Assembly: GCF_001044395.1 (NCBI RefSeq)
Contig: NZ_JANU01000012.1
Coordinates: forward strand, 62,001-126,000
From: Caenimonas sp. SL110
GTDB lineage: Bacteria; Pseudomonadota; Gammaproteobacteria; Burkholderiales; Burkholderiaceae_C
Length of the DNA: 64,000 bases
Reading direction: 5' to 3'
Shown one piece after another: positions 16,217-47,845 of the stretch. The notes under the pieces are model-generated. The model was not told the DNA's origin, searched no databases, and saw nothing but the letters and a program-made list of their open reading frames with translations. Positions within the stretch are counted from its first letter, which is position 1. Every line of letters begins with the position of its first letter. The translations under genes were made by a program, and so were the position numbers.

Positions 16217-16230
16217 TTGATCTACCTCAA
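16217..16230. promoter_or_regulatory. FNR-type box for the beta-CASP hydrolase
   Basis: TTGATCTACCTCAA. Its centre is 40.5 bases before the ATG at 16264. A -10-like TAGACT lies at 16253-16258, so transcription would start at or next to the start codon. Confidence 0.75.
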
Positions 16231-16263
16231 GCGACGGCGTGACGCCGCTTCCTAGACTGCATC

Positions 16264-17622
16264 ATGCAACTTCAATTCCTGGGCGCGACCGATACGGTCA
16301 CCGGCTCGAAGTACCTGGTGCGAGAGGGCACGAGCAAGGTGCTCGTCGACTGCGGGCTCTTTCAGGGCTACAAGCAGCTGCGGCTTCGCAACTGGTCCGC
16401 ACTGCCGGTGCGACCCGACCAGATCGACGCGGTGATCCTCACCCATGCGCACATCGATCACAGCGGCTACCTGCCGCTGCTGGTGCGCGATGGCTTCAAG
16501 GGACCCATCTACTGCACGCCCGCCACCAAGGATCTGTGCTCCATCCTGCTGCCCGACTGCGGACACCTGCTCGAAGAAGAGGCCGAGCACGCGAACCAAT
16601 ACGGCCTGTCCAGGCATCACCCCGCCCTGCCGCTCTACACGCGCAATGACGCGATGGCTTCGCTGAAGCGATTCAAGGCCGTGGCTCCTTCAAAACCGTG
16701 GCAGCCGGTCCCGGGCCTGACCGCGCACCTCACGCCATCGGGCCACATGCCGGGGTCGGCATTCGTCAGGCTGGACAACGGCAAGCGCAGCATTGTGTTT
16801 TCGGGTGACCTGGGCCGGCCCAATGACCTGGTGCTGGGCGCGCCGGTGCCATTCGAGGGCGCGGACTACCTGGTGGTCGAATCGACCTATGGCGATCGCC
16901 TGCACGACAACTCCGACCCGCTCGTGGCGCTGGCTGCCATCATCAACCGCACCGTCAAGCGCGGCGGCATGGTGCTGATCCCTGCGTTTGCGGTGGGCCG
17001 CGCGCAAACCGTGCTGCACTGCCTGCGCCTGCTGATGGACCGGGGCGACATTGCGCATCTGCCCGTGTTCCTGAACAGTCCGATGGCAGCGAGCGCAACG
17101 CAGGCCTATCTGAAGCACGGCGACCAGCTGCGCCTGTCGGACCATGACAGGAAGGCGATGGCCGCGCTGCCCAAGATCGTGGGCACGCCGCAAGAGTCAG
17201 AAAAGCTCAATTCGCGCAAGGGCCCGATGATCGTGATTGCCGCCAGCGGCATGGCGACTGGCGGGCGTGTGGTTCATCACCTGAAGGCGTTCGCACCCGA
17301 TGCCCGCAACACGATTTTGTTCACCGGCTTCCAGGCCGGTGGTACGCGCGGCGCGACGATTGTGAGCGGCAGCCCGACGGTGCGGATTCACGGACAGGAT
17401 GTTCCGGTTCGGGCTGAAGTCGCGAGTATCGATCACCTGTCGGCGCACGCCGATTCCAATGAAATCCTGCAGTGGCTGAGCAGTGCAAAGACTCCGCCCA
17501 AGACCACGTTCATCACGCATGGCGAACCTCACGCCGCCGACGCGCTGCGCCAGCGGATCGAGCGCGAGCTGCACTGGGATGTCTACATGCCGACGTGGCT
17601 GGAGACGGTGAAGCTGCGCTGA
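16264..17622 (+). CDS. Metallo-beta-lactamase/beta-CASP RNA-processing-type hydrolase
   Basis: 452 residues. The N-terminal metallo-beta-lactamase motifs HTHAHIDHSG, the GHMPGSA histidine and SGDLGRP aspartate are intact. They are followed by a beta-CASP insert and the C-terminal zinc-ligand segments IDHLSAHADSNE and FITHGEP (RMMBL). This is the layout of the CPSF73/YSH1-like bacterial nucleases (RNA cleavage) in the cytoplasm. Under an FNR box and within an anaerobic-response cluster, it may act in RNA turnover during oxygen limitation (inference). No ribosome-binding site is visible before the ATG. The nucleic-acid target is unknown. Confidence 0.92.
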   Translation: MQLQFLGATDTVTGSKYLVREGTSKVLVDCGLFQGYKQLRLRNWSALPVRPDQIDAVILTHAHIDHSGYLPLLVRDGFKGPIYCTPATKDLCSILLPDCGHLLEEEAEHANQYGLSRHHPALPLYTRNDAMASLKRFKAVAPSKPWQPVPGLTAHLTPSGHMPGSAFVRLDNGKRSIVFSGDLGRPNDLVLGAPVPFEGADYLVVESTYGDRLHDNSDPLVALAAIINRTVKRGGMVLIPAFAVGRAQTVLHCLRLLMDRGDIAHLPVFLNSPMAASATQAYLKHGDQLRLSDHDRKAMAALPKIVGTPQESEKLNSRKGPMIVIAASGMATGGRVVHHLKAFAPDARNTILFTGFQAGGTRGATIVSGSPTVRIHGQDVPVRAEVASIDHLSAHADSNEILQWLSSAKTPPKTTFITHGEPHAADALRQRIERELHWDVYMPTWLETVKLR

Positions 17623-17654
17623 GTTTGAGCGGCGCGGCTGTCCGGAAATCCGGC

Positions 17655-17746
17655 TGTCATACCGGGCTTGACCCGGTATCCATGCGGCGATTGATCAGGC
17701 GCGGCTGCCGCTTCGCGGTGGATTGCGGATCAAGTCCGCAATGACA
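17655..17746. repeat. Two-stem intergenic repeat, copy 7, with exchanged stems
   Basis: Left stem ATACCGGGCTTGACCCGGTAT, centre CTGCCGCTTCGCGGTGGAT and right stem TTGCGGATCAAGTCCGCAA. The arm sequences are swapped and altered relative to copies 2 and 4, yet both stems still pair, indicating compensatory change. Confidence 0.88.
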
Positions 17747-17772
17747 GCCTCACAAGTCAGCAATGACATCCT

Positions 17773-18588
17773 TCAAACCAGGCCGCACCACACCGCCACG
17801 CGGTGAACCATATCGCTCCACAGCGCCCAGATCGCGACCAGGGCCAGCATCAATCCGGCCAATCGCGTTCCCAGGTCCTTGAACCGGCCATTGCCTGCAT
17901 CACGCAGTCGCAGGAACAACCACGGCGCGGCCGTCAGCGACAGCCCGCTGCCCAGCGCAAACAGCGCCATCGCAATCGCGCCATCGAGCGGCCCGCCGCT
18001 GAGCGAAGCCACCAGCAGCGCGGAATACAGCAGGCCGCACGGCATCAGCGCCCATAGCGTGCCGGCCACCAGCACGCCGCCCTGCCGACTCGCCAGCGGC
18101 CGCACGCGGGTCCATGCGAGCCGACCCGCACGCCCCGCCCACATCGGCTGCCGGGCCAGCACCAGCAGCGCCAGGCCCCACGCCAGCACCGCCAGATGAA
18201 AGAACATCCAGATCGGCCGCAACGCAGCCGCATTGGACGTGAGCCAGGCCAGGCTTTGCACCGCGCCAGCCGCAGCCGCGCCAGCGGCCGTGTAACCCGC
18301 GAGGCGTCCCAGCTGGAACAAGGCGGCGCGCTGGAACGCCGGATGGCTTGCAGGGCTCGCGGGCCGCGAAGGGATCGCAGTTGCAAACGTGATCGGATGG
18401 GTCATCACCTGCGCGCCGCCTGAGGCATCCCGTGCATCGCCCACACCCCGTTCACCCCCTGCACCCTGCCCATCCGACCGATCCCCAGGCCTCGTGATGG
18501 CGCCGCATGCAGCGCCGCACATGGCGATGCAATGTGGCCCGCCCGCCAGGCCCATGAGCAGCGCCGAGAACGCAAGCGCGGTGGACAA
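17773..18588 (-). CDS. Sulfite exporter TauE/SafE-family (UreH-like) membrane protein
   Basis: 271 residues with about six membrane helices. The first helix carries GLAGGPHCIAMCGAACG and the later TLWALMPCGLLYSALL, typical of the DsbD/SafE-like family often found with cbb3 oxidase genes and thought to help copper or heme delivery. A hydrophilic insert of about 40 residues follows the first helix and looks unusual. The start appears to be TTG at 18588, preceded by GAAGG at 7 bases; the next ATG would cut into the first helix. It begins 10 bases after hemN, so the two share an operon. Confidence 0.82.
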   Translation of the reverse strand: MSTALAFSALLMGLAGGPHCIAMCGAACGAITRPGDRSDGQGAGGERGVGDARDASGGAQVMTHPITFATAIPSRPASPASHPAFQRAALFQLGRLAGYTAAGAAAAGAVQSLAWLTSNAAALRPIWMFFHLAVLAWGLALLVLARQPMWAGRAGRLAWTRVRPLASRQGGVLVAGTLWALMPCGLLYSALLVASLSGGPLDGAIAMALFALGSGLSLTAAPWLFLRLRDAGNGRFKDLGTRLAGLMLALVAIWALWSDMVHRVAVWCGLV

Positions 18589-18598
18589 GGTCGTGCCT

Positions 18599-19978
18599 TC
18601 AGATGATGCGCGAGAACTTCGCGCGGTTGCGGTCGGCCTGCAGGTAGCGGTCGAACACCATCGCGACCGCCCGCACCAGGTACCAGCCGCTTTCAGTCAC
18701 TTCGATGCCGGTGTCGGTGACGCGCACGAGGCCCTGCTCGACCAGCTGGTCCATCTGCGCGAGTTCCGGCGCGAAGTACCTGCGAAAGTCGATGAGCCAT
18801 GCCACTTCGATCGACTCGAACATCACCTGGCCCTGGCACATCAGCACCATGATGACCGCGCGGCGCACCAGGTCGTCACGGTTGAGCGCAAGGCCGCGCA
18901 CCACCGGCAGGCGCCCCTGGTCCAGGTGGTCGCAATACTCTTCCATCGTCTTGGCGTTCTGGCTGTAGGTCGCGCCGATACGGCCGATGGCAGAAACACC
19001 CAGCCCGATCAGGTCGCAGTCGGGCTGCGTGCTGTAGCCCTGGAAGTTGCGGTGCAACCGCCCCTGGCGCTTGGCCACGGCGAGCGAGTCCGTGGGCAAT
19101 GCAAAGTGATCCATGCCGATGTATTCATAGCCTGCCTTGATGAAGCCATCGATCGACTGAGACAGCATCGCCAGCTTGGAACTCGCACCGGGCAGATCGG
19201 CCGACACGATGCGCCGCTGCGGCTTGAAGCGCTCGGGCAGGTGCGCGTAGCCATACATTGCCACGCGGTCGGGCCGCAAGGCGCAGACCTGCTCCAGCGT
19301 CTGCGCGAATGATTCGGGCGTCTGTTTGGGCAGGCCGTAAATCAGGTCGACATTGATGGAATCGAAACCGATGGCGCGTGCCTGCTGCATCAAGGCGGCA
19401 ACCTGTTCCAGCGGCTGGATGCGGTGCACCGCCTTCTGCACCTCCGGATTGAAGTCCTGCACCCCAAAGCTGATCCGGTTGAAGCCGAGCGCGGCGAGCG
19501 CGTCGAGCCGCTTGCCATCGACCGTGCGCGGATCGACCTCAATCGATCGCTCGCCACCGGCGGCAAGGTTGAAGGTGCGGCCCAGCATGTCCATGAGCTG
19601 GCGCAGCTCGGCATCGGAGAAGAAGGTGGGCGTGCCACCACCCAGATGCAGCTGCGTCACCGTCTGGCCGTTGCCGAGCGCAGCGCCATGCAGATCGATT
19701 TCGCGCGCCAGATAGGCCAGGTAGCCCGTGCTGCGCGAATGGTGCTTGGTGATGATCTTGTTGCAGGCGCAGTAGTAGCACAGCGACTCGCAAAACGGGA
19801 TGTGAACGTAGATCGACAGGGGCGCCGCTGCCGCCGCGCCCTGCTGCCTCTGCACGAGCGCCTGGGAGTAGTCGGGCGCAGCGAACGCCTCGACGAACCG
19901 GTCGGCCGTCGGGTAGGAGGTATAGCGCGGGCCGGAGATATCGAATCGGCGCAGCAGGTCGGATGAAACTACGGTCAT
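18599..19978 (-). CDS. hemN: Oxygen-independent coproporphyrinogen III oxidase
   Basis: 459 residues, radical SAM enzyme. HemN decarboxylates coproporphyrinogen III to protoporphyrinogen IX without oxygen. The N-terminal GPRYTSYPTADRF segment and IPFCESLCYYCACNK cluster (CxxxCxxC) are at about residues 15-70, and LHLGGGTPTFF follows. HemN_C elements are in the last third. ATG at 19978 is used; a TTG two codons upstream is less likely. It is preceded by the acyl-CoA ligase gene at 15 bases and followed by the SafE-type gene, fitting heme supply for cbb3 oxidase under low oxygen. Confidence 0.96.
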   Translation of the reverse strand: MTVVSSDLLRRFDISGPRYTSYPTADRFVEAFAAPDYSQALVQRQQGAAAAAPLSIYVHIPFCESLCYYCACNKIITKHHSRSTGYLAYLAREIDLHGAALGNGQTVTQLHLGGGTPTFFSDAELRQLMDMLGRTFNLAAGGERSIEVDPRTVDGKRLDALAALGFNRISFGVQDFNPEVQKAVHRIQPLEQVAALMQQARAIGFDSINVDLIYGLPKQTPESFAQTLEQVCALRPDRVAMYGYAHLPERFKPQRRIVSADLPGASSKLAMLSQSIDGFIKAGYEYIGMDHFALPTDSLAVAKRQGRLHRNFQGYSTQPDCDLIGLGVSAIGRIGATYSQNAKTMEEYCDHLDQGRLPVVRGLALNRDDLVRRAVIMVLMCQGQVMFESIEVAWLIDFRRYFAPELAQMDQLVEQGLVRVTDTGIEVTESGWYLVRAVAMVFDRYLQADRNRAKFSRII

Positions 19979-19993
19979 GGACAAGACGTTTTT

Positions 19994-22717
19994 TTAGTTC
20001 GCCGACTTTGCACCGCCAGACGCCGCTGCGACTTGATCCATGTCACGAACCAGCGTCATCCGCAGTGCGAATCCGTCATCGCCTTCGGTGACGGCAAATC
20101 CGACGCTGCGAGCCAGCGCCAGCATCGCCGCGTTCTCGCGCAGGCACTGCCCGATGACTTCTGTCGTGCCGCGCGCACGCAGGTAGTTGAGCAGCTTGTC
20201 CATCATCACCCGGCCCAGCCCGTGCCCCTGCCATGCCGATGCCACCTGTATCGCAAACTCCGCGCGGATGTTGTCCGGGTCACACACCGCGCGCACCTCA
20301 CCTGCCATGCGCTGGTTGCCGAATTCATCAGCCGGTGTGAGCGCGATGAAAGTCATCTCGCGGTCGTAGTCGATCTGGCTGAAGCGCGCGAGTTCCGAGG
20401 TCGGCACTTCGCGCCTGGCCATGAAAAACCGCAGCCGCATGTCTTGCGGCGAACACTTCGCATAGAAAGCCTTCAGCCGGTTTCCGTCTTCGGGGCGTAT
20501 AGGTCGCAGCAGCAGCTGCGTGCTGTTGACGGTGACGCGTTCTTCCAGCTTCTGCGGATACGGCCGCAGGGCAAGCTGCGCACCAGCGGCCGTGCCGCGC
20601 AGCCGTACGCGCACGCGTGCATCGAGCGAGATCGCGCCCTGCGCATCGACCACCAGCGGGTTGATGTCCAGCTCGGCCAGGGACGCGAGGTCGCAGGCCA
20701 TCTGCGACAGCCGCACCAGCGCATCGACAACCGCCTGTTCGCTCTTGGCCGGTGCGCCGCGATGGGCAGCGAGCATGGTGCGCACACCGCTGCGATCGAT
20801 CAGGTCGCGCGCCAGCAGGTCGTTCAGGGGCGGCAATGCAATGGCGTGGTCCTTCGACAGCTCGACATCGGTGCCACCCCGGCCAAACAGCAGCACCGGC
20901 CCGAACACCGGGTCGCTCGCGATGCCAGCAATCAGTTCGCGGCCATGCGGGCGCTTGACCATGCCCTGCACCGCGAAACCCGCGATCTGGGCACCGGGCA
21001 CCAGGCGCGCGGCTTGCTGGCGCATGCGAACGGTGGTGTTGCGCACCTCGTCGGATGAATCCAGTCCCAGCGCGACGCCGCCCACATCCGACTTGTGCAC
21101 GATCTGCTGCGAGACCAGCTTCACCGCGACCGGAAACCCGATGTCCACTGCTGCCTGCGCAGCCTCGTCACCGGTGCGCGCCATTCTTGTCGGCGCTGTC
21201 TCGATGCCGTACGCACGCAGCAAGGCATGCGCTTCTTCCGGATCCAGCCATTCGTGGCCGGCATCGACGGCCCGGCGCACGATGGCCAGTGCGCGATCGC
21301 GTTCCGGGGCAGGCCCGGTTTCGCGGTCGTCAGGCACCTGGTGCAACGATTCCTGGTTGCGGTGGTAGTCGGCCAGCTGCAGCCATGCGCCCACTGCGCG
21401 TTCGGGTGTGCTGTACCAGGGCAGGCCCTGATACGAGAAAGAGCTGCGGGCACCTGCTACCGCGTTGCCTCCCATCCAGCAACTGAGTACCAGCTTGGAC
21501 GCATTGCGGATATGCGGCAGGCATTCGAGCGCGATGTCGGAAGCCGGCACGATGGCCGTCGGCGCATGCATGAAGATGACGCCATCGACTTCCTGCGCCG
21601 ACAGCAGCACGTCGAGCGCCTGCGAATACCGCTGCGTGGGTGCATCGCCCACGATATCCACCGGATTGCCATGCGACCAGCTCGGCGGCAGGCAGGCATC
21701 GAGCGCCTTCATCGTCGCATCCGACAACTGCGCGAGATTGCCGCCGGCCAGGGCCAGTGCGTCGGCAGCGAGCACGCCCGCACCACCGCCGTTGGTGAGC
21801 AAGGCCACCCGCTCGCCACGCCAGCTGTGGGGATGGGCCAGCGTGCCTGCTGCATCGAACAGGGCCTCCAGCGTGTCCACCCGCAACATGCCCGCCCGGC
21901 GCGCTGCGGCGTCGAAGACCGCATCGGAGCCGGCCAGCGCACCGGTATGCGAGGCGGCTGCCTTCGCCGCAGTGGGCGAACGGCCCGCCTTCACGACGAT
22001 GACCGGCTTGTTGCGCGACGCCGCGCGCGCGGCCGACATGAACTTGCGGGCCGCCTTCACGGATTCGACGTACAGCAAGATGGCGCGCGTGTTCGGATCG
22101 CTGGCCAGATAGTCGAGCACATCGCCGAAATCGACATCGGAGCTGTCGCCCAGCGAGATGAAGTGAGAAAAACCGATGCCGCGTTCGTTGGCCCAGTCGA
22201 GCATGGTGGTCGCAAGCGCTCCCGACTGCGTGACGAATGCGAGCGAACCGGCCAGTGCATTGCCCGGCGCAAAGCTGGCGTTCAGGCCGATGCCCGGGAC
22301 CAGCGCGCCAATGCAGTTGGGGCCGAGGATTCGCAGCAGATACGGCTTGGCCGCCGTGAGCATCGCCTGCTCCAGGGTGATGCCACTTTCTTGCGCCGGC
22401 TCCCGAAGTCCCGCCGCAAAGACGATGGCCGCGCGCGTGCCCTTCGCGCCCAGCTGCGCAATCACCGACGGCACCGAGGCGGCAGGCGTGCAGACGATCG
22501 CAAGGTCGGGCGCTGCCGGCAACGATGCGACATCGGGCCAGGCCTTCTCGCCGCCGACCAGCTCATGGTTCTTGTTGACAGCCCACACCGGCCCGGTCAG
22601 GCCGCCTGAGCGCGCATTGCGCAACACGACGTTGCCCACACTGCCGGGCCGGTCCGATGCGCCGATGACGGCGACAGACCGGGGCTGGAACAACGACTCC
22701 AGGTTGCGAACGCTCAT
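19994..22717 (-). CDS. ADP-forming acyl-CoA synthetase fused to a GNAT acetyltransferase (Pat/YfiQ-like)
   Basis: 907 residues. The order is a CoA-binding domain (VIGASDRPGSVGN), a ligase domain with PNCIGALVPG and the ASHTGALAG loop bearing the phospho-histidine candidate, an ATP-grasp domain (around VAVKLVSQQIVHKSDVGGV), and a C-terminal GNAT domain of about 150 residues (acetyl-CoA loop WQGHGLGRVMMDKLL). This is the architecture of protein lysine acetyltransferases such as E. coli PatZ. Some relatives also make acetate from acetyl-CoA with ATP gain. Its ATG overlaps the stop of a universal stress gene (ATGA), so both are expressed from the FNR-controlled promoter upstream. Confidence 0.93.
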   Translation of the reverse strand: MSVRNLESLFQPRSVAVIGASDRPGSVGNVVLRNARSGGLTGPVWAVNKNHELVGGEKAWPDVASLPAAPDLAIVCTPAASVPSVIAQLGAKGTRAAIVFAAGLREPAQESGITLEQAMLTAAKPYLLRILGPNCIGALVPGIGLNASFAPGNALAGSLAFVTQSGALATTMLDWANERGIGFSHFISLGDSSDVDFGDVLDYLASDPNTRAILLYVESVKAARKFMSAARAASRNKPVIVVKAGRSPTAAKAAASHTGALAGSDAVFDAAARRAGMLRVDTLEALFDAAGTLAHPHSWRGERVALLTNGGGAGVLAADALALAGGNLAQLSDATMKALDACLPPSWSHGNPVDIVGDAPTQRYSQALDVLLSAQEVDGVIFMHAPTAIVPASDIALECLPHIRNASKLVLSCWMGGNAVAGARSSFSYQGLPWYSTPERAVGAWLQLADYHRNQESLHQVPDDRETGPAPERDRALAIVRRAVDAGHEWLDPEEAHALLRAYGIETAPTRMARTGDEAAQAAVDIGFPVAVKLVSQQIVHKSDVGGVALGLDSSDEVRNTTVRMRQQAARLVPGAQIAGFAVQGMVKRPHGRELIAGIASDPVFGPVLLFGRGGTDVELSKDHAIALPPLNDLLARDLIDRSGVRTMLAAHRGAPAKSEQAVVDALVRLSQMACDLASLAELDINPLVVDAQGAISLDARVRVRLRGTAAGAQLALRPYPQKLEERVTVNSTQLLLRPIRPEDGNRLKAFYAKCSPQDMRLRFFMARREVPTSELARFSQIDYDREMTFIALTPADEFGNQRMAGEVRAVCDPDNIRAEFAIQVASAWQGHGLGRVMMDKLLNYLRARGTTEVIGQCLRENAAMLALARSVGFAVTEGDDGFALRMTLVRDMDQVAAASGGAKSAN

Positions 22718-23242: not shown

Positions 23243-23256
23243 TTGACACAGGTCAA
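23243..23256. promoter_or_regulatory. FNR/DNR-type box between divergent usp genes
   Basis: TTGACACAGGTCAA, a perfect inverted repeat. The -10-like elements lie 29.5 bases from the centre on both sides (AACACT rightwards, TATCGT leftwards). Confidence 0.75.
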
Positions 23257-23766: not shown

Positions 23767-24609
23767 TCAGCGCGGCTTCTCGCGCCGGTAGATCAGGTGG
23801 TAGGCCAGGCTCACCAGCCCCGCCCCACCGACCAGGTTGCCCGCAATCACCACCGCGAGATTCGCGGCCATGCCGCCCACCGTCACTGCCGCATCGACAG
23901 ACCCAACCCCAACCCCAACCCCAGCCCCAGCCCCCGACTGGATCAGCATCGCCAGTGGCATCAGGTACATGTTGGCGATGCTGTGCTCGAATCCGGCGGC
24001 AACAAACGCGCTAACCGGAAGCACCACCGCAATCGCCTTGTCGATCACGCTGCGACCCGCCATCGCCATCCACACCGCCATGCAGACCAGCACGTTGCAC
24101 AGCACGCCGCGCACGAAGGCCTGCTCCCACGGCAGGTCTTGCTTGGCAAGGGCGATCTTCACGACCGTACGGCCGATCGCGCCGTTGCCCATCTCGGTGT
24201 GCCCGCTCAGGTAGACGGCCAGCGCGAGCGAGGCGGCGCCGGCAAAGTTCGCCAGGCAGACCACGATCCAGTTGCGGGCCACTGCGCGCCAGCCGATCAG
24301 CCCGTCGGCCCAGGCCATGACCAGCAGGTTGTTGCCGGTGAACAGCTCCGCGCCGGCGACCACAACCAGCACCAGACCCAGCGAGAACACAGCCCCACCC
24401 AGCAGTTGCGACGTGGCCAGGCCCAGGGAGGCGTCGGCCTTCACGATGACAAACAGCAAGGAGCCAAAGCCGATGAATACCCCCGCCAGCAACCCCAGCA
24501 TGGCGAGGGGCACCAGGGCCATGCGCGCCTTGGCGACGCCAGCCTCCTCCACCCTTCTCGCGATCTGTGCGGGCGCGTACGCATCGGAGCCAAAAAGTTC
24601 GGTGCTCAT
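23767..24609 (-). CDS. FocA/NirC-family formate/nitrite channel
   Basis: 280 residues with six or more membrane helices. The FNT segments FIGFGSLLFVIV, the GAELFTGNNLLVMAWADG loop (omega loop region) and GVLCNVLVCMAVWMA are characteristic. Such pentameric channels move formate, nitrite or lactate across the inner membrane, relevant under low oxygen. A short hexanucleotide tract encodes GAGAGVGVGVGS near residues 220-232, a region between the last helices. ATG at 24609 has no ribosome-binding site and sits 40.5 bases from an FNR box centre. The anion carried is not predictable. Confidence 0.92.
   Translation of the reverse strand: MSTELFGSDAYAPAQIARRVEEAGVAKARMALVPLAMLGLLAGVFIGFGSLLFVIVKADASLGLATSQLLGGAVFSLGLVLVVVAGAELFTGNNLLVMAWADGLIGWRAVARNWIVVCLANFAGAASLALAVYLSGHTEMGNGAIGRTVVKIALAKQDLPWEQAFVRGVLCNVLVCMAVWMAMAGRSVIDKAIAVVLPVSAFVAAGFEHSIANMYLMPLAMLIQSGAGAGVGVGVGSVDAAVTVGGMAANLAVVIAGNLVGGAGLVSLAYHLIYRREKPR
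23901..23935. repeat. Hexanucleotide tract inside the formate/nitrite channel gene
   Basis: About five units of AACCCC/AGCCCC on the plus strand, encoding alternating Gly-Val/Gly-Ala on the minus strand. The 6-bp period keeps frame, so length change would only add or remove dipeptides. Confidence 0.7.
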
Positions 24610-24642: not shown

Positions 24643-24656
24643 TTGACAAGGATCAA
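24643..24656. promoter_or_regulatory. FNR-type box between the channel gene and the DksA/TraR-like gene
   Basis: TTGACAAGGATCAA. The centre is 40.5 bases from the leftward ATG (24609) and 59.5 bases from the rightward ATG (24709). AACAAT at 24679-24684 is the rightward -10 candidate. Confidence 0.75.
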
Positions 24657-27027: not shown

Positions 27028-27041
27028 TTGAGAAAGATCAA
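27028..27041. promoter_or_regulatory. FNR-type box between cbpA and the MacB-like ABC operon
   Basis: TTGAGAAAGATCAA. Rightwards, TACAGT at 27064-27069 is a -10 candidate, with the ATG 44.5 bases from the box centre. Leftwards, CATAGT occupies the same spacing before cbpA. Confidence 0.72.
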
Positions 27042-27078
27042 GCCCGCCGCACGCCCTGCTGCCTACAGTCGCAGCAAC

Positions 27079-27801
<723 letters not shown>

Positions 27802-31374: not shown

Positions 31375-32529
31375 TCAGTTCAGGCGAACGATCCAGCCTT
31401 CGGCCACGCCTTGCGGATTGATGCCAGTGCCCGCGATCGCGCGGCCGTCCGGAGAGATCGCATTGGCGCGCTGCAATGTCCAGCCGGAAAGCGTCAGGCG
31501 GCGTTCGTCAGTCAAAGCCTGTGCAAGTGTGCGCAGGCCGCGCGCCTGGTCCCAGATCACCGCCGATTCGACGCCGCCGCGCGTCCATCCGCCCACCAGC
31601 ACCGCGCCACTCGCCGAAAGCGCGCGGACATTCATGGCCGTGACATCAGAAGGCGCGCCTGTGATGGCGGTCACTCCACTTGCTACGGTCCAGCGAAACA
31701 TGCGCGCTGCGCCCGTACTGCCAATCGACACACCGGCAGCGACCCCGCCATCGGCCGACAGGGCACTGACGGAGGCGAAGGTGTCGCCCGTTGCAAGATG
31801 CCCGAGCGTCACCGGCGGCTGGCCGAAGGGCCACAGCATCGCGCCCCTGAGCACCGGGCTTCCCGCGCCGCCAATCACCTGGCCGTCACTGGAAATGGCA
31901 GAGGCAGTGCTGGCCGCGCTCAGGCCGCCGCCAAACTGCCCCAGGCTGACAGGACCCGTTGCCTCGGTCCATCTGAACGCGGTGTTGTTGGTGCCCAGGC
32001 AGGTGCCGACGACAACTTGTCCGTCGCCAGACACCGCCGTGCCGTTGCAAAGCACGGTGGAAGGCAAGGGCGCGACGCGCTGCATGCCGCCAGTTGCAGT
32101 CCACCGGAAAGCGGTGAGCGACGAGGTCGGCATGGCGCTGGTGTCTGCGCTGCCAACAACCACGGAACCGTCACTGGACATATCGGCGCCGGTGCTTCGC
32201 GTGCCGCCGGGCAGGAAGCCGAGCGCTGTGAATCCCGCGCCGACCGTCCATCGAAAGGCCTGCTCGCGTCCGGTTGCATCCTTGGCCGTTCCAGCAACTG
32301 CAAGGCCATCGGCCGAGATCGCGGTGGCCTCACTCGTCACATGCCCCGCAGGCGCGCCCAGCGGCAGGAAGCTCGCGGTGGGCGCATCAGGCCGCGCCGG
32401 CTCGTCGCCCGCGCTGCCCCCGCCGCCGCAACCCGACATGAAGCCGATTGAAACAAGTGCTGCCGAAAGCAACACAAGTGATACGGCACGACGGCGCGGG
32501 CCACGGGTGCGGGAGTGTGCGATGTTCAT
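31375..32529 (-). CDS. HAF-repeat (extracellular beta-propeller-like) lipoprotein
   Basis: 384 residues. The signal SLVLLSAALVSIGFMSGC ends at a cysteine in a lipobox-like MSGC, followed by GGGG. The mature part holds about six HAF-type repeats, of the kind AISADGLAVAG...AFRWT...FTALGFLPGG and MSSDGSVVVG...AFRWT. These are predicted to form a beta-propeller on the cell surface or in the periplasm. The start is ATG at 32529, exactly 41.5 bases from the centre of an FNR box shared with the phosphorylase gene. The function is not known; FNR control for such a protein is unexpected. Confidence 0.85.
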   Translation of the reverse strand: MNIAHSRTRGPRRRAVSLVLLSAALVSIGFMSGCGGGGSAGDEPARPDAPTASFLPLGAPAGHVTSEATAISADGLAVAGTAKDATGREQAFRWTVGAGFTALGFLPGGTRSTGADMSSDGSVVVGSADTSAMPTSSLTAFRWTATGGMQRVAPLPSTVLCNGTAVSGDGQVVVGTCLGTNNTAFRWTEATGPVSLGQFGGGLSAASTASAISSDGQVIGGAGSPVLRGAMLWPFGQPPVTLGHLATGDTFASVSALSADGGVAAGVSIGSTGAARMFRWTVASGVTAITGAPSDVTAMNVRALSASGAVLVGGWTRGGVESAVIWDQARGLRTLAQALTDERRLTLSGWTLQRANAISPDGRAIAGTGINPQGVAEGWIVRLN

Positions 32530-32563
32530 GCTTTCACTCTGCGCGCCCTGCCGCTGCCTCGCA

Positions 32564-32577
32564 TTGATCTTCGTCAA
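32564..32577. promoter_or_regulatory. FNR-type box exactly centred between two divergent start codons
   Basis: TTGATCTTCGTCAA. Its centre (32570.5) is 41.5 bases from both the leftward ATG (32529) and the rightward GTG (32612). -10 candidates TAGAGT (rightwards, 32600-32605) and CAGAGT (leftwards, 32541-32536) are equally spaced. Confidence 0.8.
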
Positions 32578-32611
32578 GCGTGGGCAGCTCGCGCATGCCT
32601 AGAGTGCGTAG

Positions 32612-34132
32612 GTGGAAACTTCAACACATCACCATCTGCGCCTGCGCCGGATGGGCATCGACACCTACCAGGAGCCGGTGCTCTACATGCGCAAGGACTG
32701 CCCTGTGTGCGTGTCCGAGGGCTTCGAGGCGCAATCGCGGGTCGAGCTGACGCTGGGCACTCGCACCATCGTCGCAACCCTGAACGTCGTGGACGGCGAC
32801 TACCTCACCAACGGCGAGACCGGGCTATCTGAAGCCGCGTGGCGAATGCTGGGCGCAAAGGACGGTGACGAAGCCATTGCGCGTCACCCTCGCCCCCTGG
32901 AGTCGCTGGGTCATGTACGGGCCAAGGTGTACGGCAAGCGATTGAGCGGCTCGGCTTTTGACGCCGTCATCGAGGACGTGGCCGCAGGCCGCTACTCGGA
33001 CCTGCAGCTTGCCGCTTTCGTCACCGCGTGCGCGGGCGACGGCCTGGACACCGAAGAGACGATCGCGCTGACCCGCTCGATGGTCAAGGCCGGCGACCGC
33101 ATGCAATGGGGCGACGGCAGCATCATGGACAAGCACTGCGTGGGCGGCCTGCCCGGCAACCGCACCAGCATGATCATCGTGCCCATCGTCGCCGCGTGCG
33201 GCCTGCGCATGCCAAAGACTTCGTCGCGCGCGATCACCTCGCCCGCAGGCACCGCCGACACCATGGAGACGATTGCGCCGGTCGAACTCGACACCACCCA
33301 GATACGGCGTGTGGTCGACACCACCGGCGGCTGCGTCGTGTGGGGCGGGGCCGTGCGCCTGAGTCCTGCCGATGATGTGCTGATACGGGTGGAGCGTCCG
33401 CTCGACCTCGACAGCCAGGGCCAGCTGGTCGCCTCCATCCTTTCCAAGAAGGCGGCCGCGGGCGCGACCCATGTGCTGATCGACATGCCCGTGGGGCCCA
33501 CCGCCAAGATTCGCAGCCAGAAAGCTGCGCGCGACCTGACCGAACAACTGCGCGTGGTGGGCGAAGCCCTGGGACTGCGGGTCGAGGTCATGCAGACCGA
33601 CGGCCTGATGCCGGTGGGTCGCGGCATAGGTCCGGCGCTCGAAGCACACGACGTGCTCGCCGTGCTGGAGCAGACGCCCGGGTTCCCGCAGGACCTGGCC
33701 GAGCGCAGCCTGCAGCTGGCGGCGCGCTTGCTCGAGATCGGCGGCGCTGCCGCGCCTGGCATGGGCATGCAGCTGGCTGGCCCCGTGCTGGCTGACGGCC
33801 GTGCGTGGCGCAAGTTCCAGGAAATCTGCGAGGCGCAGGGCGGCATGCGCGAGCCACCGGTCGCACCCTTCACGCGCGAGATCGTGGCGGGCCGCAGCGG
33901 CTCGGTCGTGTCGATGCACAACCGCCGTCTTGCACGCATCGCCAAGCTCGCAGGCGCACCCAAGTCGCCCAGCGCAGGCATCTACCTGCATGTGCGGGCC
34001 GGTGAATTCGTGGAACGCGGCCAGCCGCTCTACACGCTGCACGCCGCATCGCCGGGCGCCCTCGCCTACGCCGCCGAATACGCGCAGTCGCAAGCCGATG
34101 CGGTGTTCGTGATCGAGGACGAGCCATGCTGA
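32612..34132 (+). CDS. Thymidine/AMP phosphorylase family protein
   Basis: 506 residues, longer than classical DeoA (about 440) because of an N-terminal domain of about 80 residues with the YMRKDCPVC motif. The phosphate-binding segment MDKHCVGGLPGNRTSM and the SSRAITSPAGTADTMETI signature resemble archaeal-type AMP phosphorylases, which cleave nucleoside monophosphates to ribose-1,5-bisphosphate. The start is GTG at 32612, with no ribosome-binding site and at the predicted transcription start. It overlaps the PRPP synthetase gene by 7 bases, so the pair should work together in nucleotide salvage. Confidence 0.9.
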   Translation: METSTHHHLRLRRMGIDTYQEPVLYMRKDCPVCVSEGFEAQSRVELTLGTRTIVATLNVVDGDYLTNGETGLSEAAWRMLGAKDGDEAIARHPRPLESLGHVRAKVYGKRLSGSAFDAVIEDVAAGRYSDLQLAAFVTACAGDGLDTEETIALTRSMVKAGDRMQWGDGSIMDKHCVGGLPGNRTSMIIVPIVAACGLRMPKTSSRAITSPAGTADTMETIAPVELDTTQIRRVVDTTGGCVVWGGAVRLSPADDVLIRVERPLDLDSQGQLVASILSKKAAAGATHVLIDMPVGPTAKIRSQKAARDLTEQLRVVGEALGLRVEVMQTDGLMPVGRGIGPALEAHDVLAVLEQTPGFPQDLAERSLQLAARLLEIGGAAAPGMGMQLAGPVLADGRAWRKFQEICEAQGGMREPPVAPFTREIVAGRSGSVVSMHNRRLARIAKLAGAPKSPSAGIYLHVRAGEFVERGQPLYTLHAASPGALAYAAEYAQSQADAVFVIEDEPC

Positions 34133-37045: not shown

Positions 37046-37870
37046 TCAGTGCACTCTCAGTTCGAACGCGCGCGTCATCGCCGGCACGTCCACGATGCGG
37101 ATGTGGCGCTTGTCCACTTCGAGCAGGCCCTGCTGCTGGAAAGCAGAAAACGTGCGGCTCACGGTTTCGAGCTTCATGCCCAGGTAGCTGCCGATCTCCT
37201 GGCGTGACATGCGCAGGTGGAACTCGGTTGGCGAGTAGCCGCGCGCCTTCAGGCGTTGCGAGAGGTTCAGCAGGAAAGCGGCAAGGCGCTCTTCGGCGTT
37301 CATGCTGCCCAGCAGCAGCATCAGGCTGTGTTCGCGCACGATTTCGCGGCTCATGAGGCGGCTCACGATGTGCTGCAGGTTGCTGGATGTGGCGGCCAGT
37401 TCATTCAAGTGCGAATACGGAATCGCGCAGACTTCGGCGTCTTCCAGTGCCACGGCCGTGCTGGCGTGCTTGCCGTGCGCCACGCCGTCCAGGCCCATCA
37501 GTTCACCAGCCATGTGAAAGCCGCTGACCTGGTCGCGGCCATCGGCCAGCACCAGGCTGGACTTGAAGGTGCCCATTCGCACCGCATAGATGAAGTGGAA
37601 GGCCTCGCCCTCGTGGTAAATCGCCTGGCCGGCTGCGATGCGGCGGCGCGCGAACTTCAGGCCGTCAAGGCGCTCGATGTCGTTGCCGGCCAGTCCGCAG
37701 GGCAGGCAGATCTCGCGCAGGTGGCAGCTGGAGCACGAAGTCTTCAGCGGTGCAACCGGCGAAGTCTCGACCGGGGCCGTGGTGGCGGTCTTGGTCGCGG
37801 CCTTGGGGGCAGTCGTCGCAGGCACGAGCCGGAAAACGCGTTCACGCGGCATCGAGGCAGTAGCGGACAT
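37046..37870 (-). CDS. fnr: FNR-type oxygen-sensing transcription regulator
   Basis: 274 residues, with about 30 residues more at the N-terminus than E. coli FNR. The 4Fe-4S ligands are visible: C46, C49 and C55 (CSSCHLREICLPC) and C148 in DAEVCAIPY. The cyclic-nucleotide-fold domain follows. The C-terminal helix-turn-helix has MSRQEIGSYLGMKLETVSRTFSAFQQ with the E-x2-SR contacts for TTGAT half-sites. When oxygen is absent the dimer binds TTGATN4ATCAA. Seven such boxes are in this window, so this is the likely master regulator of the surrounding genes. It is preceded by a lone receiver gene at 20 bases. Confidence 0.95.
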   Translation of the reverse strand: MSATASMPRERVFRLVPATTAPKAATKTATTAPVETSPVAPLKTSCSSCHLREICLPCGLAGNDIERLDGLKFARRRIAAGQAIYHEGEAFHFIYAVRMGTFKSSLVLADGRDQVSGFHMAGELMGLDGVAHGKHASTAVALEDAEVCAIPYSHLNELAATSSNLQHIVSRLMSREIVREHSLMLLLGSMNAEERLAAFLLNLSQRLKARGYSPTEFHLRMSRQEIGSYLGMKLETVSRTFSAFQQQGLLEVDKRHIRIVDVPAMTRAFELRVH

Positions 37871-43068: not shown

Positions 43069-43080
43069 TTGCGTGATCCC

Positions 43081-43218
43081 TCAGTCCTGCTCGAACGGAA
43101 TGCGTGCGGCTTCATCGAAGCCGCCCTTGTTACGGCGGGCATAAGCCCACCAGACGATGCCGAGAAACGTTGCAAGCGAGACCAGCGTGGCCGCGATGCG
43201 CATGGTGGTGATGTCCAT
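43081..43218 (-). CDS. ccoQ: Cbb3 oxidase small subunit CcoQ
   Basis: A 45-residue protein, MDITTMRIAATLVSLATFLG..., with one membrane helix (IAATLVSLATFLGIVWWAYA) and a polar tail containing RRNKGGFDEAARIPFEQD. CcoQ stabilises CcoP in the complex. It lies between ccoO (stop 43238) and ccoP (start 43068), the usual place. Short, but the position and sequence fit the family. Confidence 0.92.
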   Translation of the reverse strand: MDITTMRIAATLVSLATFLGIVWWAYARRNKGGFDEAARIPFEQD

Positions 43219-43237
43219 TGTTGTTGCTCCTCGGGGT

Positions 43238-43864: not shown

Positions 43865-43881
43865 GATTTTTTATTACCTTG

Positions 43882-45315
43882 TCATGCCGCTGCAGGAACA
43901 GCCACCGGCACGCGCGCCGCACGTCCCTGGGTTGCCGTCATCCAGGTGTTCCAGGCCATGATCAGCATGCCGCCGAGGTACAGCACACCGCCCAGGAAGC
44001 GCACCACATAGAAGGGGTACGTGGCCTTCACCGATTCGACGAAGGTGTAGGTGAGCGAGCCGTCTGCGTTGACCGCGCGCCACATCAGGCCCTGCATCAC
44101 ACCGGCGATCCACATGGCGGCGATGTACAGCACGATGCCGATCGTCGCCATCCAGAAGTGCAGCTCGATGGCAGGCACCGAATGCATCTTCTTCTGGCCG
44201 AACAGGCGGGGAATCAGGTAGTAGAGCGAGCCCATCGAGATCAGGCCCACCCAGCCGAGCGCGCCGGAGTGCACATGGCCCACGGTCCAGTCGGTGTAGT
44301 GCGACAGGGCGTTGACGGTCTTGATCGACATCATCGGACCTTCGAACGTGCTCATGCCGTAGAACGAAAGCGACACGATCAGAAAGCGCAGGATCGGGTC
44401 GTCACGCAGCTTGTGCCATGCGCCCGAGAGCGTCATCACGCCGTTGATCATGCCGCCCCAGCTGGGCGCGAGCAGGATCAGCGAGAACACCATGCCGATG
44501 GACTGCGTCCAGTCGGGCAGCGCGGTGTAGTGCAGGTGGTGCGGACCCGCCCACATGTAGGTGAAGATCAGCGCCCAGAAGTGAACGATGGACAGGCGGT
44601 AGCTGTAGACCGGCCGCTCGGCCTGCTTGGGGATGAAGTAATACATCATGCCCAGGAAGCCTGCGGTGAGAAAGAAGCCGACCGCGTTGTGGCCGTACCA
44701 CCACTGGATCATCGCGTCTTGTACACCGGCGAATGCCGAGTACGACTTCATCCAGCCCGCAGGAATCGCGGCGCTGTTGACGATGTGCAGGATGGCGACG
44801 GCCAGGATGAAGGAGCCGTAGAACCAGTTGGCCACGTAGATGTGGCGCACCTTGCGGATACCGATGGTGCCGAAGAACACGATGGCATACGCAATCCACG
44901 ACACGGCGATCAACAGGTCGATCGGCCATTCGAGTTCCGCGTATTCCTTGCCTTGCGTGTAACCCAGCGGCAGGCTGATCGCTGCGGCGACGATCACCAG
45001 CTGCCATGACCAGAAGTGGAACTGCGCCAGCTTGCCCAGAAAGAGCGGCACGTGGCAGGTGCGCTGCACGACGTAGTAGCTGGTGCCAAAGAGCGCGCAG
45101 CCGCCAAAGGCGAAGATCACGGCGTTGGTATGCAGGGGACGAAGCCGCCCGTAACTGAGCCAGGAAATGCCGAAGTTGAGTTCGGGCCAGGCCAGTTGCG
45201 CCGCAATCAGCAGCCCCACCAGCATGCCAACCACGCCCCAGACAACGGCCATGATGGAGAACTGTCGCACCACCGTGTCGTCGTAGATCGCTGGCTGCGC
45301 AGGGTTTTCAGTCAT
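43882..45315 (-). CDS. ccoN: Cytochrome c oxidase cbb3-type catalytic subunit CcoN
   Basis: 477 residues with about 12 membrane helices. CcoN is the high-affinity oxygen reductase subunit, with hemes b and b3 and CuB. The segments [44 protein letters not shown] (histidine ligand region), [18 protein letters not shown] and [11 protein letters not shown] are conserved. FNR box 45371-45384 lies 62.5 bases upstream, and the ATG at 45315 is preceded by AGGTG. It heads the ccoNOQPG transcript. Confidence 0.98.
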
Positions 45316-45370
45316 GGTTACACCTTTTTGTTCGATGCTCCCAGTGTCCCGCGCGCGACCTCGTGGTCAC

Positions 45371-45384
45371 TTGATGAATATCAA
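45371..45384. promoter_or_regulatory. FNR box for ccoN, overlapping the ccoS stop codon
   Basis: TTGATGAATATCAA, the closest match to the consensus TTGATN4ATCAA in the window. A -10 candidate GACACT stands 29.5 bases leftwards. The stop codon of ccoS is inside the box. Confidence 0.88.
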
Positions 45385-45518
45385 TCGGACTTGAGAATGC
45401 GCTCGCCTTCTGCCTCGACTGACTCAAACTGACCACGCCAGACAGCCCACGCCAGCGCTCCCAGGATCAACAGGCCCAGCCCGACGGAAAGGGGAATGAG
45501 AAGAAAGAGGATGTCCAT
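45381..45518 (-). CDS. ccoS: Cbb3 oxidase maturation protein CcoS
   Basis: 45 residues starting MDILFLLIPLSVGLGLLILG, a single membrane helix, then ALAWAVWRGQFESVEAEGER. CcoS is required for heme and copper insertion into the cbb3 oxidase. It follows ccoI by 28 bases and precedes ccoN. Its TGA stop lies inside the FNR box, so the box is shared between the gene end and the ccoN promoter. The family call is supported by the MDILFLLIPLS start and the neighbours. Confidence 0.93.
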   Translation of the reverse strand: MDILFLLIPLSVGLGLLILGALAWAVWRGQFESVEAEGERILKSD

Positions 45519-45546
45519 GTGCTGCGCTTTCAGTCTTTGTTCACGC

Positions 45547-47796
45547 TCAGTCCCGATTGACGCTCAGGCGGGCGGAATTGGCCACCACGAGCAGCGAACT
45601 CGCCGCCATGCCCAACCCTGCGAGCCACGGCGGCATCGCGCCAATCACTGCAAGGGGCACGCAGACGGCGTTGTAGATGGCGGCCCACGCGAGGTTCTGT
45701 CGGACCACGCGACGCGTGCGACGTGCAAGACGCAGCAATTGAGGAATCGCCGTCAGCTGGCCGCCAGGAACCGTGAAGTCGGCGCGGGCCTGCGCAAGCG
45801 GTGCGCCCTGCCCCATCGCCACCGATGCGTCGGCGCGCGCCAGCACCGGCCCATCGTTCACACCGTCGCCCACCATCAACACGCGATGGCCGAGCACCTG
45901 CTCATGGGCGACATGATCGAGCTTGGCCTCGGGCGAACAGCCACCGATGGCAGTTGCCAGGCCAGCCCGCTGGGCGATGCGGTGCACCGCAGTTTCGTTG
46001 TCGCCCGATAGCAGTTGCAGCCGCAGGGAGCTTCCGCGCAGCGCGCCCAGCGCAGAGGCGCTGTCGCTGCGCAGCACCTCTTCCAGCTCGAAGGTCGCCA
46101 GCCAGCCGTTGTCATCGGCCATGTGGACCTGGGTCGCAGACGCGGCGTTTTGAATGCCGATCACGCCGCAAAACACCGCTGAGCCCAGGCGCAACGACTT
46201 CGCGCCTTGCGCTTCCTGCAGTTGCGCCAGCACGCCACTGCCGGCGATTTCATGGCAGCCGCGCAGGTGGTAGGTCACAGCGTGGACCTCGCCTGGGGCC
46301 TTTGCGGCGCTTGCTATTGCCCGCGACGCCGGATGCAGGGAGTGGCTTGCCAGCGCGCCGGCAAGCGCCATCACGCGAGCGCGGTCTGCGCCGGGGCGCA
46401 AGTGCACAGCCGAGACGGTGAGGTCTTCGTGCGTGAGCGTGCCGGTCTTGTCGAACACCACCGTGTCGATGGCCGCGCATGCGTCGAGCGCCTGCAGCCG
46501 CCGCACCAGGATGCCGCGTCGTGCCAGCGAACCTGCAGCGGCCAGCGTTGCTGCAGGCGTTGCCAGCGAGAGCGCGCAGGGGCAGGTCACCACCAGCACG
46601 GCAATCGCAACGCTGATCGCGTGGCGCGGATCGGTGGGCCACCAGTACATCGCAGCCGCTGCTGCCGCTGCAATCACCGCAATGATGAAAGGACCGGCAA
46701 TGCGATCGGCAGCCTGCGCCAGCAGCGGCTTGTCGAGCGCCGCCTGTTCCATCAGGGCCACGATGCCTGCATAGCGCGTCTTCGAGCCGGTCTGCTCCAC
46801 CCGCATCGTGATCACGCCGGTGACGTTGTGGGTTCCGGCGATGACGGCATCGCCCTTGCGCCGCGAAACGGGATTGGATTCTCCGGTGAGGAGCGCCTCG
46901 TCGAGGTCGCTCACGCCTTCGGTCACGACGCCGTCAGCAGGAACCGTCTCGCCGGGCAGGAGGCGCACGATGTCCCCGGGCTGGAGCCGGTTCGCCGGCA
47001 CATGCTCGAAAGACCCATCGGCCGCCTGGCGCAGCACCGCCCTGGGCAGGCGGCGCATCAGCGCTTCGAGCGAGCCCGCCGTGCGGTCGCGCAGGCGCTG
47101 CTCCAGCAGGCGGCCCGACAACAGGAAGAAGACAAACATCGTGACCGAGTCGTACCAGACTTCGCCCCCGAGCGGACCCTTGGCGTCGAAGGTGGCTGCG
47201 CTGCTCGCGGCAAAGGCGATGGCGATGCCGAGCGCGACCGGCACATCCATGCCCACCCGGAGCCGGCTGAGGTCCTTGAAGGCCGCGCGAAAGAACGGCC
47301 ACGCCGAAAACACGATCACCGGTAGCGTGAGGACCCAGGATGCCCATGCCAGCAGCGCGATGATGTCGGGCGTGATCTCGCCGGGTGCAGCCGTATAGGA
47401 CGGCGTGGCATACATCATCACCTGCATCATGCAAAAACCCGCCACCAGCCAGCGCCACAGCAGCAGCCTGCGCTCCTGCACGCGTGGCAGGGCCGTGAGC
47501 AGGTCGCCCGCCGGCGTGGCGCCGTAACCTGCCCGCTGCAAGGCGTTCAACCACTGGGACGGAACGCTTGCCTGCGGCGACCACTGCAAGCGGGCCGCAT
47601 GCGTGGCGCCATTGACGTGCACGCGCTCCACGCCGGGCAGAACGCGCAGGGCGTCTTCCACGTCGAGCGCGCAGGCGGCGCAATGCATGCCCTCGATTGC
47701 CAGGAACGATTCGAGCCAGCCTTCGCGGCCGGGGACGGCGCGGCTGAACGACTCCCACTCGCGCGGGTCGTCCAGGGCGATGGAGGCCGGATTCAT
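45547..47796 (-). CDS. ccoI: Copper-translocating P1B-type ATPase CcoI
   Basis: 749 residues. An N-terminal heavy-metal-associated domain with the motif GMHCAACALDVEDAL binds copper. Eight or so membrane helices include the CPC motif in VVTCPCALSLATP, with DKTGTLT phosphorylation and GDGVNDGPVLARA nucleotide segments. It supplies copper to the cbb3 oxidase. The start is ATG at 47796, 42.5 bases from an FNR box centre, with TAGGCT as a -10 candidate; no ribosome-binding site is seen. ccoS follows. Confidence 0.96.
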   Translation of the reverse strand: MNPASIALDDPREWESFSRAVPGREGWLESFLAIEGMHCAACALDVEDALRVLPGVERVHVNGATHAARLQWSPQASVPSQWLNALQRAGYGATPAGDLLTALPRVQERRLLLWRWLVAGFCMMQVMMYATPSYTAAPGEITPDIIALLAWASWVLTLPVIVFSAWPFFRAAFKDLSRLRVGMDVPVALGIAIAFAASSAATFDAKGPLGGEVWYDSVTMFVFFLLSGRLLEQRLRDRTAGSLEALMRRLPRAVLRQAADGSFEHVPANRLQPGDIVRLLPGETVPADGVVTEGVSDLDEALLTGESNPVSRRKGDAVIAGTHNVTGVITMRVEQTGSKTRYAGIVALMEQAALDKPLLAQAADRIAGPFIIAVIAAAAAAAMYWWPTDPRHAISVAIAVLVVTCPCALSLATPAATLAAAGSLARRGILVRRLQALDACAAIDTVVFDKTGTLTHEDLTVSAVHLRPGADRARVMALAGALASHSLHPASRAIASAAKAPGEVHAVTYHLRGCHEIAGSGVLAQLQEAQGAKSLRLGSAVFCGVIGIQNAASATQVHMADDNGWLATFELEEVLRSDSASALGALRGSSLRLQLLSGDNETAVHRIAQRAGLATAIGGCSPEAKLDHVAHEQVLGHRVLMVGDGVNDGPVLARADASVAMGQGAPLAQARADFTVPGGQLTAIPQLLRLARRTRRVVRQNLAWAAIYNAVCVPLAVIGAMPPWLAGLGMAASSLLVVANSARLSVNRD

Positions 47797-47831
47797 GCCT
47801 GCGAGCCTAACGCGCGCGCCAAACCCCGCGA

Positions 47832-47845
47832 TTGACATGGATCAA
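47832..47845. promoter_or_regulatory. FNR-type box between ccoI and a usp gene
   Basis: TTGACATGGATCAA. The centre is 42.5 bases from the ccoI ATG and 67.5 bases from the usp ATG. -10 candidates TAGGCT (leftwards) and TAAGCT (rightwards, 47868-47873) are both 29.5 bases from the centre. Confidence 0.8.

What the first reader, a model, noticed from the sequence alone, without database searches (positions are those of the whole stretch)
16217..47845. FNR boxes set exactly for leaderless translation of about half the low-oxygen genes
Distances from box centre to start codon fall in two classes. Six starts are at 40.5-44.5 bases: the beta-CASP hydrolase 40.5, the formate/nitrite channel 40.5, the HAF lipoprotein 41.5, the phosphorylase 41.5, ccoI 42.5 and the MacB-like ATPase 44.5. 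Six others are at 59.5-69.5, and most of those have a visible ribosome-binding site: three usp genes, the DksA/TraR gene, cbpA and ccoN. At every site a -10-like hexamer begins about 29.5 bases from the box centre. Class II FNR activation starts transcription about 41.5 bases from the centre, so the first class would yield mRNAs starting at or within a few bases of AUG/GUG. Leaderless mRNAs are translated differently, so oxygen limitation could switch a set of genes into that mode.
Basis: partly seen in the sequence, partly recalled or inferred. Interest (0 to 1): 0.78.

Follow-up and report, generated by a model that had tools for sequence, protein, structure and literature searches.

The report
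Oxygen-sensor promoters making leaderless mRNAs
In this bacterial family the low-oxygen regulator FNR often sits at exactly the distance that should make the messenger RNA begin on the start codon itself, so some low-oxygen proteins are probably made without the usual ribosome landing site, and one respiratory assembly gene keeps this layout in most of the related genera examined.

Summary
The measurements are right. Six FNR-box genes in the window start 40.5-44.5 bases from the box centre and six at 59.5-69.5; a -10-like hexamer begins at 29.5 in 11 of 12 and at 28.5 in one. Both classes recur: in four genomes, 76 units with a -10 give ATG counts of 1 (35.5-39.5), 16 (40.5-44.5), 3 (45.5-49.5), then a broad Shine-Dalgarno class. 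In 60 family genomes ATG after box-N22-TANNNT peaks 6 bases on; 60 further genomes repeat it, 30 of 45 rows at 6-8. The peak is weak in other families of the order and absent in the rest of the class. ccoI is the deep case: 25 of 30 orthologues examined start at 40.5-43.5, and in 20 of those 25 the same box faces a divergent usp gene with a Shine-Dalgarno start. Beta-CASP and the formate channel are mostly not arranged so in relatives. Best reading: class II FNR promoters giving leaderless mRNAs, about a quarter of classifiable units rather than half. No RNA data were seen, and nothing shows that low oxygen changes how mRNAs are translated.

The parts
16217..16230 (+). FNR box (one changed base), centre 16223.5; -10 TAGACT 16253-16258; beta-CASP start ATG 16264 at 40.5
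16264..17622 (+). beta-CASP metallo-hydrolase, leaderless type
   Evidence: Pfam Beta-Casp and RMMBL; homologues align from residues 1-3
23243..23256 (.). FNR box for divergent usp genes: ATG 23184 (-) at 65.5, ATG 23318 (+) at 68.5, both with GGAG upstream
24643..24656 (.). FNR box between formate/nitrite channel (ATG 24609, -, 40.5; -10 CACACT 24621-24616) and DksA/TraR gene (ATG 24709, +, 59.5; -10 AACAAT; AGGAG)
23767..24609 (-). formate/nitrite channel, leaderless type
   Evidence: Pfam Form_Nir_trans; the 19 best homologues align from residues 1-5
27028..27041 (.). FNR box (one changed base) between ABC ATPase (ATG 27079, +, 44.5; -10 TACAGT 27064-27069) and cbpA (GTG 26965, -, 69.5; -10 CATAGT)
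27079..27801 (+). ABC transporter ATPase, near-leaderless type (about 3-base leader expected)
   Evidence: Pfam ABC_tran; start 44.5
32564..32577 (.). FNR box with leaderless-type starts both ways: GTG 32612 (+) 41.5, -10 TAGAGT 32600-32605; ATG 32529 (-) 41.5, -10 CAGAGT 32541-32536
31375..32529 (-). HAF-repeat protein with lipoprotein-like N-terminus, leaderless type
   Evidence: NCBIfam HAF_rpt; start 41.5; lipobox by eye
32612..34132 (+). thymidine/AMP phosphorylase family protein, GTG start, leaderless type
   Evidence: NCBIfam PRK04350 from residue 8, TIGR02645 from residue 9; in-frame TAG directly before the GTG
37046..37870 (-). FNR-type regulator encoded in the window
   Evidence: NCBIfam PRK11161 Fnr 227.7 bits, cut-off 228; Cys cluster and ETVSR helix in the translation
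45371..45384 (-). FNR box for ccoN (ATG 45315, 62.5; -10 GACACT 45348-45343; AGGTG)
47832..47845 (.). FNR box between ccoI (ATG 47796, -, 42.5; -10 TAGGCT 47809-47804; leaderless type) and usp (ATG 47906, +, 67.5; -10 TAAGCT 47868-47873; GGAG)
45547..47796 (-). ccoI/fixI-type metal P-type ATPase, leaderless type conserved in 25 of 30 orthologues examined
   Evidence: the name ccoI rests on the neighbouring ccoN and is inference
20033..20046 (-). additional near-perfect FNR box (GTGACATGGATCAA on the - strand) for hemN, ATG 19978 at 61.5, -10 CAAAGT

Best explanation
The boxes are class II FNR sites. Bound FNR places RNA polymerase so that the -10 begins 28.5-29.5 bases and transcription starts about 41.5 bases from the box centre. 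In one set of genes the start codon lies at that point, so the mRNA begins at or within about 3 bases of AUG/GUG and is translated without a Shine-Dalgarno site; in the rest the start codon lies roughly 15-55 bases further on behind a Shine-Dalgarno sequence. Shown here: the geometry, its sharp peak in the family, its conservation at ccoI. Inferred: the exact 5' ends and leaderless translation. Likely role (weaker inference): leaderless starts give a modest output for assembly and maintenance proteins such as CcoI, while proteins expected to be abundant (Usp, DksA-like, CcoN, CbpA) keep leaders. FNR sets the amount of mRNA, not the mode of translation.
For: Two distance classes in four genomes: 16 ATGs at 40.5-44.5 against 1 and 3 in the neighbouring bins among 76 units with a -10, and 1 among 47 units without one. 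Family peak at spacing 6: 35 of 82 rows at 6-8, repeated in 60 further genomes, 30 of 45, p 6e-10. Fading with kinship: order 29 of 96, rest of class 15 of 79, at spacings 0-16. ccoI: 25 of 26 orthologues with a perfect box (25 of 30 examined) start at 40.5-43.5, with TANNNT 6-8 bases before. Pyrimidine before the start codon in 33 of 39 rows and 20 of 25 ccoI, as at transcription starts. In 13 of 25 ccoI the frame opens no more than 9 bases before the start. From the same boxes usp starts scatter over 59.5-96.5. Two FNR-type proteins in the genome.
Against: No transcription start site was seen for any of these genes. A start at exactly 40.5 would place the expected +1 on the second base of the codon unless initiation shifts by one. 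The phosphorylase begins with GTG, reported as inefficient for leaderless mRNA in E. coli (PMC3616915, passage). Beta-CASP has the layout in only 4 of 30 loci and the channel in one other clear case. Codon-position bias in the ccoI N-terminal stretch is weak: GC 0.70, 0.62, 0.70, and 9 of 25 ccoI have a later in-frame start with a 4-5-base Shine-Dalgarno match. The low structure of the first 36 bases is common at gene starts and proves little.
Confidence: 0.78

Rival explanations
1. Oxygen limitation switches cells to leaderless translation: the leaderless set is selected as a group because such mRNAs are translated better when oxygen, energy or initiation factors are short.
For: Leaderless starts are more frequent at FNR promoters (15 of 58 classed units) than among coding ORFs at large (excess about 18 of 478), though the two counts are not like for like; ccoI layout is conserved.
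Against: The same regulator, often the same box, makes leadered mRNAs; leaderless signatures occur without FNR boxes, as in 10 phosphorylase loci; several window members are not conserved.
Confidence: 0.12
2. The near codons are not the main starts: true starts lie downstream with Shine-Dalgarno sites and the near ATG is incidental.
For: 9 of 25 ccoI have a later in-frame start with a 4-5-base Shine-Dalgarno match and the N-terminal stretch is variable.
Against: 25 of 26 ccoI keep a start codon in a 4-base window; 16 of 25 have no later start with such a match before or just after LDDP; beta-CASP and channel homologues align from their first residues; phosphorylase profiles begin at residues 8-9, before the next in-frame ATG at residue 14.
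Confidence: 0.08
3. The main mRNAs start further upstream from other promoters, so the proteins are read from leadered transcripts and the FNR start is minor.
For: Other promoters were not searched for or excluded here.
Against: Box, -10 and start codon keep register in 25 ccoI promoters, and a -10 of TAG/TAA type with spacing 6 is itself an in-frame stop, which suits initiation at the codon.
Confidence: 0.1

Closest known systems
Class II FNR promoters, e.g. fnr1 of Herbaspirillum seropedicae with the box centred at -42 (PMC5934665, passages) and cld of Ideonella dechloratans (PMC7349173, passages)
   Same: FNR box at about 41.5 from the start of transcription, -10 at the expected place
   Different: In the cld case the box is 105.5 bases from the start codon, so the mRNA has a long leader; no leaderless FNR start is described in the passages seen
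Leaderless mRNAs of Burkholderia cenocepacia (PMC4603805, passages) and Cupriavidus metallidurans (PMC7563307, passages)
   Same: A few per cent of primary starts lie on the start codon; a TA-rich -10 stands in place of the Shine-Dalgarno site
   Different: Reported as enriched for transcription-related genes; no link to FNR in the passages seen, and the word fnr has 0 occurrences in both main texts
Leaderless transcription in Mycobacterium smegmatis in aerobic growth and hypoxia (PMC6448022, passages)
   Same: Leaderless mRNAs studied together with low oxygen; leader status conserved between species
   Different: About 24% of genes with a primary start, not tied to one regulator's geometry in the passages seen

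Membership tests
Class II FNR promoter | FNR-type box TTGAYNNNNRTCAA | tested here: met
   five perfect and two one-change boxes in the window; 39 perfect in the genome, control 5
Class II FNR promoter | -10 element placed for a box at about -41.5 | tested here: met
   A2/T6 hexamer at 29.5 in 11 of 12 and 28.5 in 1
Class II FNR promoter | an FNR protein with Fe-S cysteines and the matching recognition helix in the genome | tested here: met
   window 37046-37870 and L341, both with CxxC cluster and ETVSR; the meaning of these motifs is recalled
Class II FNR promoter | oxygen- and FNR-dependent transcription start at the predicted base | not testable with these tools
   needs RNA 5'-end mapping
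Leaderless mRNA | near codon is the true translation start | tested here: met
   homologue alignments for beta-CASP, channel, phosphorylase; ccoI by conserved position; less firm for the HAF protein and the ABC ATPase
Leaderless mRNA | no Shine-Dalgarno site and -10 directly upstream of the start codon | tested here: met
   best matches of 0-4 bases before the six near codons; -10 end to start 5-9 bases
Leaderless mRNA | 5' end at or within a few bases of the start codon | not testable with these tools
   predicted only

The most novel reading that the evidence does not exclude
Leaderlessness is a selected part of the FNR regulon in this family: one box emits a leaderless ccoI mRNA one way and a Shine-Dalgarno usp mRNA the other way, so that when ribosome or initiation-factor supply changes at low oxygen the ratio of the two proteins shifts although one regulator site makes both mRNAs.
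Probability: 0.15. Interest if true: 0.85.

Novelty: new variant of a known kind. Interest (0 to 1): 0.62.

Why it matters
A regulator's geometry and a start codon are locked together here, the lock holds at one gene in 25 of 30 genera examined, and in 20 of those the divergent leadered gene on the same box is a built-in control. If the 5' ends are confirmed, the open question whether proteobacteria use leaderless translation for regulation can be tested by comparing two mRNAs made from one regulator site. It also gives a rule for correcting start-codon and promoter annotation in this family.

Tried and rejected
A generic promoter control (TTGAC-N18-TATAAT-N{0,30}-ATG, 60 genomes) gave 5 rows and was too rare to use. 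Two versions of the base-rate script were faulty and discarded: 0 ORFs; frame shifted; one search is the corrected one, and its loci are enriched for flanks of phosphorylase, ccoI and beta-CASP genes. That the beta-CASP or channel layout is conserved was tested and not borne out. Tracking of the start by the -10 position within ccoI was weak (rho 0.32, p 0.12) and is not used. L003 was first taken for fnr and is an IclR-type regulator.

Limits of the counts. Rows of pattern searches are ATGs, not genes; a box with two ATGs counts twice, and ccoI supplies many of the family rows, so rows are not independent. One search lists only 150 rows; the 142 outside the family were counted and 8 own-family rows left out. 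In one search seven own-family rows were left out, leaving 96. ccoI: 50 of 60 genomes matched and only the 30 best loci were examined. Beta-CASP: 79 of 150 genomes matched and 30 loci were examined. Phosphorylase: 49 of 150 matched and 30 loci were examined. One search excludes the two imperfect boxes, and the HAF gene fails its coding rule. Searches for papers linking FNR-type control and leaderless starts: (and 7); none of the listed titles or abstracts does, but only listings were seen for most papers, many subscription papers are not held, and supplements could not be opened.
Full report
Observation. The window is G000:C4:62001-126000 of a 4.72 Mb genome in 74 contigs. Boxes, hexamers and start codons were read directly and the hexamers recounted. 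An A-at-2, T-at-6 hexamer begins at 29.5 in eleven of twelve genes and at 28.5 (CACACT) for the formate/nitrite channel. Two boxes (16217, 27028) have one changed base; five are perfect. A further site, for hemN, belongs to the far class: box 20033-20046, ATG 19978, 61.5. An FNR-type protein is encoded in the window at 37046-37870, with a Cys cluster and an ETVSR helix, 227.7 bits against a cut-off of 228 for NCBIfam Fnr; a second is in L341. What those motifs mean is recalled.

Start codons. Beta-CASP homologues align from residues 1-3. The 19 best channel homologues align from residues 1-5. Phosphorylase profiles begin at residues 8-9, the next in-frame ATG is residue 14, and an in-frame TAG stands directly before the GTG at 32612. 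In ccoI the conserved LDDPxEW motif begins at residue 8. The HAF-repeat protein and the ABC ATPase rest on less.

Four genomes. The own genome and three relatives have 95 perfect boxes (39, 15, 13 and 28). They gave 123 box-and-gene units, 76 with a -10 core. Among these 76, ATG counts per five-base bin were 1 (35.5-39.5), 16 (40.5-44.5), 3 (45.5-49.5), 7, 13, 10 and 12 (65.5-69.5). Among the 47 units without a -10 core the 40.5-44.5 bin held 1. By a fixed rule the 76 fall into 15 leaderless type, 43 Shine-Dalgarno type, 2 both and 16 neither. So the two classes are real, and the near class is 15 of 58 of those placed in one class, not half.

Family-wide. The pattern box-N22-TANNNT-N{0,30}-ATG matched in 38 of 60 family genomes; the reversed control matched once. 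Of 82 rows, 22 lie at spacing 6, 8 at 7 and 5 at 8; other spacings hold 0-4. The base before the ATG is C in 28 and T in 5 of the 39 rows at spacing 5-9. In 60 further family genomes, 28 with a match, 30 of 45 rows lie at 6-8, against 3 of 13 spacings allowed (p 6e-10). Outside the family the signal fades: 29 of 96 rows in other families of the order and 15 of 79 in the rest of the class, both at spacings 0-16; the corresponding family figure is 35 of 53. The genes at these spacings include ccoI many times and others that read by eye as NarX-like kinases, flavin mono-oxygenases, hemerythrins and a DksA-like protein (no profile search was made for them).

ccoI. Fifty of 60 genomes, one per genus, had a match, and the 30 best loci were examined. 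Twenty-six have a perfect box, and 25 of these have an in-frame start at 40.5-43.5 with a TANNNT -10; L233 is the exception, and L240, L244, L247 and L254 lack a perfect box. Sixteen of the 25 are at 41.5 by the script's first start, and a seventeenth (L249, ATGATG) also has an ATG at 41.5. In 20 of the 25 the same box faces a divergent usp gene with a Shine-Dalgarno start at 59.5-96.5. The near side is fixed within 3 bases, the far side is not. In 13 of 25 the reading frame opens no more than 9 bases before the start, which rules out a start further upstream. The 650 codons between start and LDDP are open, but codon-position bias there is weak, and 9 of 25 have a later in-frame start with a 4-5-base Shine-Dalgarno match. 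The first 36 bases are less structured than later stretches (-4.5 against -9.6 to -12.9 kcal/mol), which is common at gene starts.

Other near genes. Beta-CASP: 4 of 30 loci, its own included, have a box at 40.5-41.5, one of the four perfect; others have boxes at 62.5-77.5 or none. Phosphorylase: 13 of 30 loci have TANNNT 6-7 bases before an in-frame start near the aligned N-terminus; three have a box at 41.5-42.5 (its own perfect, two weaker) and ten have none. Channel: one other clear case, L091; most relatives have leaders and no box. So ccoI is anciently fixed, the phosphorylase tends to be leaderless with or without FNR, and beta-CASP and the channel are local. The HAF protein and the ABC ATPase could not be judged: one homologous ATPase locus passed the identity rule and had no box.

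Background. Among 478 coding ORFs of family loci, non-FNR genes also peak at spacings 6-7, 21 against 1.6 per position, an excess of about 18. Published maps give 4.67% of primary starts in C. metallidurans (PMC7563307, passages), and in B. cenocepacia 72 genes with the start exactly at the codon and 42 within 10 bases, 24 of them tRNAs (PMC4603805, passages). Leaderless starts are an ordinary minority in such bacteria and look over-represented at FNR class II promoters, though no like-for-like base rate was made.

Interpretation. Class II geometry (box at -42 for H. seropedicae fnr1, PMC5934665, passages) puts the start of transcription on the near codons. That step is inference from position, backed by comparison, and not shown by RNA. 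The claim that oxygen limitation switches genes into leaderless translation has no support here, since the same regulator and often the same box also makes leadered mRNAs. A plausible use is output tuning: in M. smegmatis genes with canonical Shine-Dalgarno leaders had higher expression than leaderless ones (PMC6448022, passages), and here the leadered genes are those one would expect to be abundant; that expectation is recalled, not measured.

Verdict. Observation confirmed; interpretation partly supported; a new variant combining two known things, class II FNR activation and leaderless mRNA, with a conserved and testable divergent pair at ccoI-usp.

Noticed in passing
   Followed up: partly
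window 32529-32612; L035 around box 1490: A single FNR box has leaderless-type starts in both directions: 41.5/41.5 in the window and 40.5/42.5 in L035.
   Followed up: partly
L048, L051, L052, L056, L058, L060, L061, L062, L064, L065: Phosphorylase orthologues without an FNR box still have TANNNT 6-7 bases before an in-frame ATG, so the leaderless layout seems older than, or independent of, FNR control.
   Followed up: partly
ccoI promoters L226, L227, L236, L238 and others: With a TAG or TAA -10 and spacing 6, the -10 hexamer is itself an in-frame stop codon for the leaderless gene.
   Followed up: partly
window 16264-17622: The beta-CASP protein resembles archaeal aCPSF1 and Cas14 (type VII CRISPR) models well below their cut-offs; its RNA or DNA target is unknown.
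   Followed up: no
window 62969-62982: Another one-mismatch FNR-like box (TTGATCTGCTTCAA) lies at the end of the window and was not tied to a gene.
   Followed up: no
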